This document shows positions 39,544 to 53,465 of a stretch of DNA of 61,491 bases, in pieces. The translations under genes and the position numbers were made by a program. The DNA is from Psychromarinibacter sediminicola. GTDB lineage: Bacteria > Pseudomonadota > Alphaproteobacteria > Rhodobacterales > Rhodobacteraceae. The stretch spans positions 1 through 61,491 of the forward strand of contig NZ_JARGYC010000025.1 in assembly GCF_029168335.1 (NCBI RefSeq), given 5' to 3'. The notes beneath the pieces are model-generated. The model saw only the letters and a list, made by a program, of their open reading frames with translations. It was not told the DNA's origin and ran no database searches. Position 1 is the first letter of the stretch; every line of letters begins with the position of its first letter.

Positions 39544-40293
39544 ATGCGACGGCTTTATGCCATCGGTGACATCCACGGGCAGCGCGACATGCTTCGCGCT
39601 GCCCACGCGCGTGTCGCGGCCGACCGGAGGCGGTGCGGCGACGTCGACGCGCCGCTCGTCCATCTCGGTGACCTGACAGACCGGGGGCCGGACTCCCGGG
39701 GCGTGATCGAGGATCTGGTGCGCGGCATCGCGGAAGGCGAGCCGTGGCACGTCATCCGCGGCAACCACGATCAGCTGTTCCTCGATTTCCTCAGCTTCGA
39801 GGGCGAGGACGACCCCCGCCGCGACACGGCGCTCTACTGGCTGCGGCCGAATCTCGGCGGCTCCGCCACGATGGCCTCCTACGGCGTCGACCCGGACCCG
39901 CGCCGCGATCTGGAAGCGGTGCAGGCCGATGCCGGCGCGGCGGTGCCTCAATCCCACCGTGCGCTGTTGGAAAACATGCCGTACGTCCATGAGACCGAAG
40001 ACCTGATCTGCGTCCATGCCGGCATCCGACCCGGCATCCCGCTGGACAGGCAGGATCCGGACGACCTGGTCTGGATCCGCTTCGAATTCCTGGAGAGCAC
40101 CCGCGACCACGGCCGGCTGGTCGTCCACGGCCACACGCCGGCCGAAGCCCCGGAAAACCACGGCAACCGGATCAACCTGGACACCGGCGCTGGCTATGGC
40201 CGTCCGCTGACCGCCGCCGTTTTCGAAGGACGCGAGCCTTTCATCCTGACCGACAACGGCCGCACGCGGCTGCCGCTGATCTGGGATCTGTAG
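39544..40293 (+). CDS. Calcineurin-like metallophosphoesterase
   Basis: 249 residues. It shows all PPP-type motifs: AIGDIHGQRDML, VHLGDLTDRGPDSRGVIEDL, VIRGNHDQLFLDFL, CVHAGIRPGIPLDRQ and VVHGHTPAEAPENHGNRINLDTG. The fold is that of serine/threonine protein phosphatases (ApaH/PrpA-like); the true substrate is unknown. Only six bases after serA, so probably co-transcribed. Convergent with the DUF2783 gene, whose stop is 5 bases away. Confidence 0.9.
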   Translation: MRRLYAIGDIHGQRDMLRAAHARVAADRRRCGDVDAPLVHLGDLTDRGPDSRGVIEDLVRGIAEGEPWHVIRGNHDQLFLDFLSFEGEDDPRRDTALYWLRPNLGGSATMASYGVDPDPRRDLEAVQADAGAAVPQSHRALLENMPYVHETEDLICVHAGIRPGIPLDRQDPDDLVWIRFEFLESTRDHGRLVVHGHTPAEAPENHGNRINLDTGAGYGRPLTAAVFEGREPFILTDNGRTRLPLIWDL

Positions 40294-40297
40294 CCGC

Positions 40298-40498
40298 TCA
40301 GCCCAGCGGTGTCTTCCGCGCCAGGGCCAGCGCTTCGCTCAGCACGGTCCGGTCACCGATATGGTTCGCCAGAATCATCACTAACTGGGCGTTCAGAGCC
40401 TGACTCTCCGCCTCGCTCAGCCCCTTATGCGTGGCCAGAAGCTCCTCGTAGAACCCGTCGTGATCGGCCAGGTTCGGCGTGTCGATCAATGCGGTCAT
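40298..40498 (-). CDS. DUF2783 small protein
   Basis: 66 residues from ATG 40498, which overlaps the monooxygenase TGA as ATGA. The sequence MTALIDTPNLADHDGFYEEL, then LSEAESQALNAQLVMILANH and EALALARKTPLG, matches the DUF2783 family, small helical proteins encoded beside FAD monooxygenases in aromatic-degradation clusters. Possibly a subunit or stabiliser of that enzyme; the role has not been established. An in-frame extension upstream was rejected since it lies inside the monooxygenase. Confidence 0.8.
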   Translation of the reverse strand: MTALIDTPNLADHDGFYEELLATHKGLSEAESQALNAQLVMILANHIGDRTVLSEALALARKTPLG

Positions 40499-42045
40499 TC
40501 GCCCCTCCAGATTGCCTCGATGGTGGCCTCGACGGCGGTGCGGTCGACATAGGGCCAGCGCGCCGCGATCACCTGGTCGGGCCGGATCAGATACACGGTC
40601 TTCTCGGCCTCGCCCATGTAGCGGCGGCGAATCTCGTCGGTGATTTCCGGCGTCAGCACCTCGGCGCCCGCCACCTCCGGCGCCTGGCACCCCAGCGCAA
40701 GCACGACCATACGGCCGCCCAGCGCATTCAGCAGCCAGCCGTTGCCCATCGGCGCATCCGGCGCCACGGCGCCCGGCCGCGACACGCGCGGCAGCGCCTT
40801 GTCGTCGGCGCCGTTCACCGGATAGACGCAGGGCACTGACAGCCGGCCGGAATTCACCCAGCTCCGCGCGAAAGGCGCCTTGGCGGCCAGGGCCAGCACC
40901 TGGTCGCGGAACAACCGTTCGGCCCCGTCGGCCGGGGTCATGAAGCGCGTCGACCGGGTCGAATTCAGGATGTTCTCGTCCGTGCCGTAGGTTCGCTCGG
41001 TGTTATACGTCTCTAACAGGCCCGAATCCGCGCGACCCTCCAGCACGGCGGCCAGCTTCCAGCCCAGGTTGTCGACGTCCTGCAGCCCGCCGTTGCCGCC
41101 GCGCGCACCGAAGGGCGACACGACATGCGCGCTGTCGCCCACGAACAGCACCCGGTCATGCACGAAGCGCTCCAGCCGCCGGCACTGGAAGGTATAGACG
41201 CTGACCCAGTCCAGCTTGAAATCCGAATGCCCCACGACCTTCTCGATCCGCGGGATCACCTTCTCGGGCTTTTTCTCCTCGACCGGGTCGGCGTCCCAGC
41301 CGAGCTGCAGGTCGATGCGATAGATGTTGTCCGGCTGTTTATGCAAGAGCGCCGACTGGCCGGGATGGAACGTGGGCTCGAACCAGAACCACCGCTCCGA
41401 GGGCGTATCGGCCGTCATCTCGATATCGGCGATCAGAAACCGCTCCTCAAAGAGCTCGCCCGCGAAATCCAGCCCCATCATCTCGCGGATGGGCGACTTC
41501 GCCCCGTCGCAGGCGATCAGGTACTCGGTTTCGAGACTGTATTCGCCATCCGGCGTCTCGATCCGCACCGTCGCGGCCTCGGCAGTCTGGTCGACCTCCA
41601 CCACCTCGTTCTTGAACCGCACGTCCACCAGATCGTTGTCGAGGGCGGCCCGCACCAGGAACTCCTCGACGTAATACTGTTGCAGGTTCACGAAGGCGGG
41701 CATCTTGTGCCCTTCTTCCGGCAGCAGGTCGAAGTTGAACACCTCCTTGTCGCGGTGGAACGTGCGCCCGACCTTCCAGGTCACGCCCTTCTCGACCGAC
41801 TTGTCGCCGATCCCCAGGCGATCGAGGATTTCCAGGCTCCGCTTCGACCAGCAGATCGCGCGCGAGCCGACCGAGACCACGTTGTTGTCGTCCAGCACCA
41901 CGGACGGCACCCCGTAATTCGCCAGCTCCAGCGCCATCGCCACGCCGATCGGCCCGGCCCCCACGATGACCACCTTGTGCCGCGGCTCCGGCGCGGTCAG
42001 GCCCGGCGGGGCGGTGTAGGGAAAGGGTTGATAGTCATAAGGCAT
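40495..42045 (-). CDS. FAD-dependent aromatic monooxygenase (MhpA-like)
   Basis: 516 residues, class A flavoprotein monooxygenase. FAD-binding GxGxxG is KVVIVGAGPIGVAMALEL, the DG motif EYLIACDGAKSPIREMMGLDF, and the GD motif RVLFVGDSAHVVSPFGARGGN, followed by GLQDVDNLGWKLAAVLEG. A thioredoxin-like C-terminus ends with PYVDRTAVEATIEA. Related to 3-(3-hydroxyphenyl)propionate hydroxylase; the ring substrate here is unknown but the homogentisate genes nearby fit a phenolic acid. Starts inside the small membrane gene. Confidence 0.88.
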   Translation of the reverse strand: MPYDYQPFPYTAPPGLTAPEPRHKVVIVGAGPIGVAMALELANYGVPSVVLDDNNVVSVGSRAICWSKRSLEILDRLGIGDKSVEKGVTWKVGRTFHRDKEVFNFDLLPEEGHKMPAFVNLQQYYVEEFLVRAALDNDLVDVRFKNEVVEVDQTAEAATVRIETPDGEYSLETEYLIACDGAKSPIREMMGLDFAGELFEERFLIADIEMTADTPSERWFWFEPTFHPGQSALLHKQPDNIYRIDLQLGWDADPVEEKKPEKVIPRIEKVVGHSDFKLDWVSVYTFQCRRLERFVHDRVLFVGDSAHVVSPFGARGGNGGLQDVDNLGWKLAAVLEGRADSGLLETYNTERTYGTDENILNSTRSTRFMTPADGAERLFRDQVLALAAKAPFARSWVNSGRLSVPCVYPVNGADDKALPRVSRPGAVAPDAPMGNGWLLNALGGRMVVLALGCQAPEVAGAEVLTPEITDEIRRRYMGEAEKTVYLIRPDQVIAARWPYVDRTAVEATIEAIWRGE

Positions 42046-51739: not shown

Positions 51740-52072
51740 TCAGGCGGCCGGGAACGCCTGCAGACGCGCGACGAGCGCGGCGCGGGAGTCGGCGTAAAGC
51801 GCTCGCAGGGCGGCGAGGTCGATTCGCTCGGGCTGCCCCGCGGCGGCCAGGCGTTCGCCCTGGCGGCAGATTTCGGCCATCTGCTGAAATCCAAGGTTCA
51901 GCGCGCTGCCCTTCAGGAAGTGAAGACGCTCCTTCAGGCCGTCGGGCCCCTGGCACGTCTCCAATTCGGCCACCACCTCGTCGGATTCCTCGACGAACAT
52001 CTCGACCACCTCCAGGAACTCCTCGGCGCCGATTTCCTGCCGCAACTCGTCGACACGCTGCCAGTCGATCAT
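51740..52072 (-). CDS. Histidine phosphotransfer (Hpt) protein
   Basis: 110 residues. Four-helix Hpt domain: VVEMFVEESDEVVAELETCQ, then KERLHFLKGSALNLGFQQMAE where His-51 is the phosphoacceptor, and ERLAAAGQPERIDLAALRAL. It shuttles phosphate between a hybrid kinase and a receiver. Divergent from the response regulator at 52221, so the two probably form one phosphorelay that ends in the PP2C phosphatase. No kinase is encoded nearby. Confidence 0.9.
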   Translation of the reverse strand: MIDWQRVDELRQEIGAEEFLEVVEMFVEESDEVVAELETCQGPDGLKERLHFLKGSALNLGFQQMAEICRQGERLAAAGQPERIDLAALRALYADSRAALVARLQAFPAA

Positions 52073-52220: not shown

Positions 52221-52739
52221 GTGACCGGCGTGACCGCACAGAACGAAATCCTCCGGCTGGGTCAGCGACCGGCGCCGCCCGCGACCGTGCTGGTCGTGGA
52301 CGACAGCCGCGCGCAGCGGCGCCTGCTGGCGACCTATCTCAAGAAGATGGGTCTGAACGTGGTCGAGGCACCGTCCGGCGAGGCGGCGCTGACCCTCTGT
52401 CAGATCGAACAGCCGGACCTGATCGTCAGCGACTGGGTGATGCCCGGGATGGACGGGCTGGCGTTCTGCCGCGCCTTCCGGGCGATGCGCGGGGACAGGT
52501 ACGGCTATTTCGTGCTGCTGACGTCGAACGACGAAAAGCACGAGGTCGCGGTGGGCCTCGACGCCGGGGCCGACGACTTCCTGACGAAACCCGTGCATGC
52601 GGCCGAGCTGCGCGCCCGGATCCGGGCCGGTCAGCGCGTCCTCCGGATGGAGCGGGAGCTGAACCTGGCGCTGGACGAGATGAAACAGCTGCACGCCGTC
52701 ATCGACCGCGACCTGGTCGAGGCTCAGAAACTGCAGTAA
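52221..52739 (+). CDS. Response regulator receiver, N-terminal part of a split RR-PP2C gene
   Basis: 172 residues from GTG 52221 (GTG 52230 also possible). The receiver has VLVVDDSRAQRRLLATYL (acidic pocket at 27-28), LIVSDWVMPGMDG with phosphoacceptor Asp-71, VLLTSND (Thr/Ser switch) and ADDFLTKPVHAAEL (Lys-123). A helical linker LNLALDEMKQLHAVIDRDLVEAQKLQ (two blocks) then meets TAA at 52737. The same frame continues open into the SpoIIE-type phosphatase, so the stop interrupts a gene that in relatives is one protein of about 415 residues. Confidence 0.88.
   Translation: MTGVTAQNEILRLGQRPAPPATVLVVDDSRAQRRLLATYLKKMGLNVVEAPSGEAALTLCQIEQPDLIVSDWVMPGMDGLAFCRAFRAMRGDRYGYFVLLTSNDEKHEVAVGLDAGADDFLTKPVHAAELRARIRAGQRVLRMERELNLALDEMKQLHAVIDRDLVEAQKLQ
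52737..52739 (+). other. In-frame TAA splitting the RR-PP2C gene
   Basis: The codons around the site read CAG TAA TCC CTC, while the related fused proteins have a Gln-Gln-Ser-Leu run here by my recollection. A single C-to-T change in a CAA codon would explain it. The two halves are in the same frame with only this stop between them. Confidence 0.8.
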
Positions 52740-52745
52740 TCCCTC

Positions 52746-53465
52746 TTGCGCGACCGGGACCGCAGCTTTCCGGGGGTCGACGTGTCCCTCCTCCTGCGGC
52801 CGGCGGGGCGCGTCGGCGGCGACCTCGTCGGCATGTTCGAGGTGAACGCGCGCGAGATCGGGGTGTTCGCGCTGGATGTGTCCGGGCACGGGATCGCCTC
52901 GGCCCTGATGACGGCGCGGCTGGCGGCGCATTTCGCGGGCACCACGCCGGGCACGAATATCGCGATCACCCGCGACCGCGACGGTCAGCCGGTGATGCGC
53001 AATCCCAGCGCGGCCGTGGCGCGCCTCAACGACATCGTCCTGAACCAGATGGAGACGGAGCAGTATCTGACCCTGATCCTGGCCCGGATCGCGCTGGACG
53101 ACGGCCGCGTGACGCTGACCCAGGCCGGCCATCCGCACCCGATGATCCACCGGGCCGACGGCGCGGTGGAGTCTGCCGGCGACGGCGGCATGCCCGTGGG
53201 CCTTCTGCCCGCGGCCGGCTTCTCGGACACCGAGCTGCAGCTTCGGCCCGGCGATCGCATCCTGATCGGCTCCGACGGGATCACGGAATGCATGTCGCCG
53301 GGTCACGAGATGTTCGACGATGCCGGGCTGCGGGCCTTTCTGCGCGATCACGCGATGTCGCGCGGGCAGGCCCTGTTCGACCGCCTGATCGACAGGCTGG
53401 CGGGCCATATGGGGCACAGCGACTTCGCCGACGACGTCTCGGCCATCCTGCTGGATTTCAGCTGA
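52746..53465 (+). CDS. SpoIIE-type PP2C phosphatase domain, C-terminal part of split RR-PP2C gene
   Basis: 239 residues if a TTG at 52746 is used; no strong Shine-Dalgarno is seen and translation may depend on readthrough or reinitiation. The PP2C core has VSLLLRPAGRVGGDLVGMFE (metal-binding Asp), VFALDVSGHGIASALMTARLAAHF, LTLILARIALDDGRVTLTQAGHP, GGMPVGLLPAAGF and ILIGSDGITECMSPGHEMF with DDVSAILLDFS. All expected metal residues are present, so the domain itself looks sound. It probably dephosphorylates an anti-sigma-factor antagonist. Confidence 0.75.
   Translation: MRDRDRSFPGVDVSLLLRPAGRVGGDLVGMFEVNAREIGVFALDVSGHGIASALMTARLAAHFAGTTPGTNIAITRDRDGQPVMRNPSAAVARLNDIVLNQMETEQYLTLILARIALDDGRVTLTQAGHPHPMIHRADGAVESAGDGGMPVGLLPAAGFSDTELQLRPGDRILIGSDGITECMSPGHEMFDDAGLRAFLRDHAMSRGQALFDRLIDRLAGHMGHSDFADDVSAILLDFS

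What the first reader, a model, noticed from the sequence alone, without database searches (positions are those of the whole stretch)
52221..53465. In-frame TAA splits a response regulator-PP2C phosphatase
The receiver (52221-52739) and SpoIIE-type phosphatase (52746-53465) are in one frame separated only by TAA. The linker on both sides (EAQKLQ, stop, SLLRDRD) reads as one continuous helix. Relatives I recall carry one fused protein of about 415 residues. The phosphatase keeps all metal residues and the receiver keeps Asp-71, so neither half looks decayed. Options: recent null, sequencing error, programmed readthrough, or a true two-protein switch with TTG reinitiation.
Basis: partly seen in the sequence, partly recalled or inferred. 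Interest (0 to 1): 0.7.

Follow-up and report, generated by a model that had tools for sequence, protein, structure and literature searches.

The report
Stop codon inside an rbaY-type phosphatase
A marine bacterium's gene for a signal-controlled phosphatase, kept as one intact protein by its relatives, carries a single stop codon in the helix that joins its two halves, most likely a recent one-base loss-of-function change or a sequencing error, not a new two-protein switch.

Summary
A receiver and a SpoIIE/PP2C domain share one frame broken only by TAA at 52737-52739. The 4 other genomes of the genus have no stop, nor do 43 relatives I extracted. A search of 394 family genomes for a stop at this exact place found only the window's own. 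The column is Gln in 39 of 43 relatives, CAA in 25, so one transition explains the TAA. The gene is of the RbaY type: the only SpoIIE domain in this genome and in each of 4 sisters, with an open rbaV/rbaW-like pair elsewhere. The phosphatase half is not evolving faster, so the stop is recent, or an error, or the half is still used. TTG 52746 has no Shine-Dalgarno pairing; GTG 52782 has a strong one but lies 42 nt on, inside the first strands, and is not conserved. No stop-reading tRNA was found, in an incomplete set. Best reading: a recent nonsense mutation that removes or uncouples the phosphatase. A base error is the main rival.

The parts
52221..52739 (+). Upstream product: receiver domain plus linker helix, 172 aa, ending at the TAA. 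GTG 52230 is an alternative start.
   Evidence: Pfam Response_reg; helix 127-174 in the model
52737..52739 (+). In-frame TAA at residue 173, a Gln column in 39 of 43 relatives
52740..53465 (+). Downstream SpoIIE-type PP2C phosphatase region, open to its own stop
52746..52748 (+).
   Evidence: +0.2 kcal/mol
52772..52784 (+). Possible internal start: GGGGGT (52772-52777) and GTG 52782 (residue 188)
   Evidence: -9.8 kcal/mol; falls inside predicted strand 186-193
51740..52072 (-). Divergent Hpt-domain gene beside it; possible phosphodonor (inferred)
   Evidence: Pfam Hpt; counterpart beside the same gene in sister G001, 56% identity

Best explanation
This is an rbaY-type gene (receiver - helical linker - SpoIIE/PP2C phosphatase) that has recently taken a one-base nonsense mutation at a conserved glutamine codon in the last turn of the linker helix. 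Translation ends after residue 172 and gives a receiver with its linker helix but no catalytic domain. Any phosphatase made from a weak internal start would lack the linker which, in related enzymes, passes the signal and pairs the catalytic domains. The expected result is loss or uncoupling of the genome's only SpoIIE-type phosphatase, so that the RbaV-like protein stays phosphorylated and the partner switch stays low. Shown: the stop, its absence from the relatives examined, open partner genes, lack of decay. Inferred: loss of function, and its consequence (from rbaY mutants of Rhodobacter capsulatus and from the RsbU/RssB mechanism).
For: 4 of 4 other same-genus genomes fused; 43 of 43 extracted relatives open; no stop at this place in the other 393 family genomes by exact pattern. 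Gln in 39 of 43 relatives, 25 CAA and 14 CAG: one transition from CAA. The window's terminal branch in the phosphatase half is 0.237 against 0.389, 0.440, 0.143 and 0.125 in the sisters, and its phosphatase/receiver ratio is the lowest of the five, so no long decay. TAA ends 2 of 35 window genes. One SpoIIE domain in this genome and in each of 4 sisters. STAS and HATPase partner pair open and overlapping. rbaY mutants of R. capsulatus have less gene transfer agent and lower stationary viability (PMC3999984, abstract and passages).
Against: No reads seen, so a base error fits the same data. The phosphatase half is as well conserved as in fused sisters, which also fits continued use. GTG 52782 has strong Shine-Dalgarno pairing. 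No expression data. The R. capsulatus protein itself was not aligned.
Confidence: 0.62

Rival explanations
1. Base-call or assembly error: the organism's gene is intact and fused, and the TAA exists only in this 278-contig draft.
For: A single base differs from the commonest relative codon; both halves look fully constrained. Draft assembly, reads not available.
Against: 0 of 150 scored ABC ATPase domains have an internal stop, the other 23 matches of the query in this genome have none, and no second credible interruption was found in the window. The site lies about 8.7 kb from the window's end, not at an edge.
Confidence: 0.22
2. A working two-protein form: receiver-linker protein plus a separate phosphatase from an internal start, best GTG 52782.
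For: GTG 52782 has the strongest Shine-Dalgarno pairing (-9.8 kcal/mol) of 33 in-frame ATG/GTG/TTG codons tested, about as strong as the best of eight gene starts compared (-10.0). Phosphatase half undecayed.
Against: It starts at residue 188, inside strand 186-193 and after strand 180-183. Not conserved: of four sisters two have GTG with weaker pairing (-6.2, -1.7), one has strong pairing but GTT; of 43 relatives 15 have a start-like codon there, none with pairing of -8 or better. The gap is 42 nt; in E. coli 38 nt cut coupled restart by 80-90% in two gene pairs and abolished it in a third (PMC10666635, passages). TTG 52746 has no pairing (+0.2), though one of the eight compared starts (46707, possibly wrongly placed) also has none. 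No other family genome has a stop here.
Confidence: 0.1
3. Readthrough or suppression of the TAA gives some fused protein.
For: The frame beyond is open and conserved.
Against: No relative examined shares the stop. None of 38 tRNA genes found has a stop-reading anticodon, but the set lacks tRNA-His, -Tyr and -Ile. That TAA followed by T terminates well is recalled, not tested.
Confidence: 0.04

Closest known systems
RbaY of Rhodobacter capsulatus (rcc00181; PMC3999984, abstract and passages seen)
   Same: Receiver then PP2C domain in a gene of 1230 bp, located apart from an overlapping rbaV-rbaW pair; homologues reported in other Rhodobacterales
   Different: RbaY is one protein; here a TAA interrupts it. 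Its sequence was not aligned here.
Pseudomonas aeruginosa RssB (PDB 3eq2, 3f7a)
   Same: Receiver, helical linker, PP2C domain; matched over residues 20-366, E 5e-31
   Different: Uninterrupted; also an adaptor for sigma-S degradation (PMC12143880, passages)
Bacillus subtilis RsbU and B. cereus RsbY
   Same: Phosphatases of a partner switch; RsbU is activated through a helical linker (PMC12143880, passages)
   Different: RsbU has another N-terminal domain; neither is reported split in the passages seen
Naturally SigB-deficient Staphylococcus aureus isolates (PMC10135042, PMC6748969; search listing and abstract starts only)
   Same: Natural strain-level loss of a partner-switching pathway
   Different: Other phylum and pathway; the lesions were not read here

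Membership tests
RbaY-type REC-PP2C phosphatase | N-terminal receiver and C-terminal PP2C (SpoIIE) domain in one frame | tested here: met
   Pfam on both halves; frame shared but interrupted by TAA
RbaY-type REC-PP2C phosphatase | One continuous polypeptide | tested here: not met
   TAA at 52737-52739; met by 43 of 43 extracted relatives
RbaY-type REC-PP2C phosphatase | RbaV (STAS) and RbaW (HATPase) partners in an overlapping pair elsewhere in the genome | tested here: met
   G000 contig C77, L207 4320-4667 and 4627-5133
RbaY-type REC-PP2C phosphatase | Sequence orthology to R. capsulatus RbaY | not tested
   R. capsulatus protein not fetched; identity rests on domains, length and partners
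RbaY-type REC-PP2C phosphatase | Dephosphorylates RbaV-P | not testable with these tools
   Needs biochemistry
Programmed stop-codon readthrough | Stop conserved at the same place in relatives | tested here: not met
   0 of the other 393 family genomes
Programmed stop-codon readthrough | A tRNA able to read the stop | tested here: inconclusive
   None among 38 found, but set lacks His, Tyr, Ile
Termination-reinitiation gene pair | Start overlapping or very near the stop, with a usable ribosome site | tested here: not met
   TTG 6 nt away without Shine-Dalgarno pairing; GTG with it 42 nt away (distance rule from PMC10666635)

The most novel reading that the evidence does not exclude
The stop is fixed in this species and the gene has become two: a free receiver-linker protein and a phosphatase started at GTG 52782 and released from receiver control, which turns the RbaV-RbaW switch from signal-gated to constitutive.
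Probability: 0.07. Interest if true: 0.5.

Novelty: new member of a known kind. Interest (0 to 1): 0.2.

Why it matters
If real, it is a natural knockout of the genome's only SpoIIE-type phosphatase, in a partner switch that in R. capsulatus raises gene transfer agent production and stationary-phase survival; this genome keeps a GTA_TIM domain without a stop. That is a modest case of strain-level loss of a regulator. A working split would show how a fused signalling protein can come apart, but the evidence does not favour it.

Tried and rejected
TAA recoded as sense: not supported. No stop-reading tRNA among 38 found (no tRNA-His, -Tyr or -Ile in the set), and 0 of 150 scored ABC domains with an internal stop (230 candidates, 80 not scored).

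Error-prone assembly: a first scan of sister ORFs against the window flagged many stops because antisense and over-long ORFs were included. With the best-scoring row kept per place, 10 of 59 rows held a stop, this one included. Six of the nine others were inspected and lie in over-extended N-terminal parts or out of frame with the real gene. The other three (4843; 13967; 40277-40550) were set aside as shadow or weak rows by strand and score only. The 35 genes were picked by hand without flagged rows, so their zero stops is by construction.

Relaxed selection: not seen on terminal branches. Third-position lengths for the receiver half were saturated and not used.

Restart at ATG 52833 (residue 205): it would lose D201.

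Family survey: one search prints only part of its rows, so the exact-place pattern was added. It tests that place only; 101 of 394 genomes had no match at E<=1e-60 and were not studied.

Rows: the 43 relatives are 4 sisters (L009-L012), 11 of the 80 loci (L036-L045, L050) and 28 (L113-L140). L033-L035 were left out because they seem to be the same genomes as sisters, and the more distant loci were left out too. L036 and L115 seem to be the same gene; both are in the 43, and L115 was dropped for alignment A1 (42 relatives).

Papers: listings show no paper on a split rbaY by title or abstract start; full texts were not searched further. The listing was used only to choose PMC10666635.

Full report
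What is there. The frame 52221-53465 holds a receiver domain and a SpoIIE-type PP2C phosphatase domain separated by a single TAA at 52737-52739 (Pfam). The genome is a 278-contig draft of 5.03 Mb, 99.99% complete. The closest named records are Maritimibacter and Pseudoruegeria, so the host is a marine member of the Rhodobacteraceae (inference). The divergent neighbour is an Hpt-domain gene.

Relatives. The 4 other genomes of the genus carry the gene without a stop at 68-72% identity. Of 394 genomes drawn from the family, 293 (own included) match at E<=1e-60; each printed match row except the window's has no internal stop, but the print-out is cut. A DNA pattern for a stop (or TGG) at exactly this place matches 2 of 394 genomes: the window's own, and G324, where the codon is TGG and the contig is not that of its phosphatase gene. 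I extracted 43 relatives and all 43 have one open frame. At the stop column 39 have Gln (25 CAA, 14 CAG), 2 Ala, 1 Leu, 1 Glu (one gene is probably counted twice). A single C-to-T change from CAA explains the TAA. In 35 hand-picked window genes CAA is 44 of 410 Gln codons, and TAA is the stop of 2 of 35.

Decay or error? Against four sister genomes, 59 best-scoring rows add up to 57.7 kb of the window; 10 hold a stop, and this is the only one I judge to interrupt a real gene (three weak rows judged by strand and score only). In the whole genome 150 of 150 scored ABC ATPase domains have no internal stop. The assembly is thus not generally error-prone, but one wrong base cannot be excluded. The window's terminal branch is not long in the phosphatase half (0.237; sisters 0.389, 0.440, 0.143, 0.125) or the receiver half (0.128; sisters 0.148, 0.137, 0.036, 0.062), and its ratio of the two is the lowest of the five. 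The phosphatase has not drifted for long, or is still used, or was never broken.

Where the stop cuts. The model built on alignment A1 (42 relatives) has one helix from 127 to 174 between receiver and phosphatase (confidence there is moderate, 75-79 over 151-180). The stop is residue 173. The upstream product keeps the receiver and nearly the whole linker; the downstream half keeps all its predicted strands only if it starts before residue 180. The best solved match over both domains is Pseudomonas aeruginosa RssB (3eq2, E 5e-31). In RsbU, and by structure in RssB, such linkers cross as helices and pair the phosphatase domains, which activates RsbU (PMC12143880; passages). Cutting the link should uncouple the enzyme from its receiver even if the domain were made; that step is inferred.

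Could the second half be translated? TTG 52746 is 6 nt past the stop but has no Shine-Dalgarno pairing (+0.2 kcal/mol); of eight window gene starts compared, energies run from -10.0 to +0.4, so lack of pairing alone is not decisive. GTG 52782, 42 nt past the stop, has the strongest pairing (-9.8) of 33 in-frame ATG/GTG/TTG codons. It would begin at residue 188, inside strand 186-193 and after strand 180-183. Two of four sisters have GTG there with weaker pairing (-6.2, -1.7); of 43 relatives 15 have a start-like codon there, none with pairing of -8 or better. In E. coli, a 38-nt gap cut coupled restart by 80-90% in two gene pairs and abolished it in a third (PMC10666635, passages). A low independent start is possible; nothing shows it was selected.

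Could the stop be read? None of 38 tRNA genes found has a stop-reading anticodon, in a set that lacks tRNA-His, -Tyr and -Ile. No relative examined shares the stop, which argues against a programmed event.

What the gene does. Domain order, length and partner layout match RbaY of Rhodobacter capsulatus, a 1230-bp REC-PP2C gene away from an overlapping rbaV-rbaW pair, whose mutants make less gene transfer agent and survive stationary phase less well (PMC3999984; abstract and passages). This genome has an overlapping STAS/HATPase pair, no second SpoIIE domain (the same in all four sisters), and a GTA_TIM domain without a stop. I did not align the R. capsulatus protein itself.

Verdict. Most likely: a recent private nonsense mutation in a conserved rbaY-type gene (0.62); then a base error (0.22); then a working two-protein form by internal start (0.10); then readthrough (0.04). 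Ordinary in kind, modestly interesting as a natural knockout of a regulatory phosphatase. The odds did not change on checking.

Noticed in passing
window 52737 column in 43 relatives: The Gln codon there is CAA in 25 of 39 Gln-bearing relatives, although CAA is 44 of 410 Gln codons in 35 window genes. The excess of the rarer codon in a GC-rich family is unexplained.
   Followed up: partly
G002:C17:218310-218741, G002:C19:239818-240207, G003:C1:3593427-3593786: Receiver-domain matches in sister genomes with one stop inside (TAG, TAG, TGA); may be broken genes or alignments that run past a gene end.
   Followed up: no
window 51740-52072 (-): Hpt-domain gene divergent from the receiver-phosphatase gene, with a counterpart beside it in sister G001; could supply phosphate to the receiver.
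   Followed up: partly
window 52221-53465 and sisters: The phosphatase half evolves about two to four times faster than the receiver half on the terminal branches of all five genus members.
   Followed up: no
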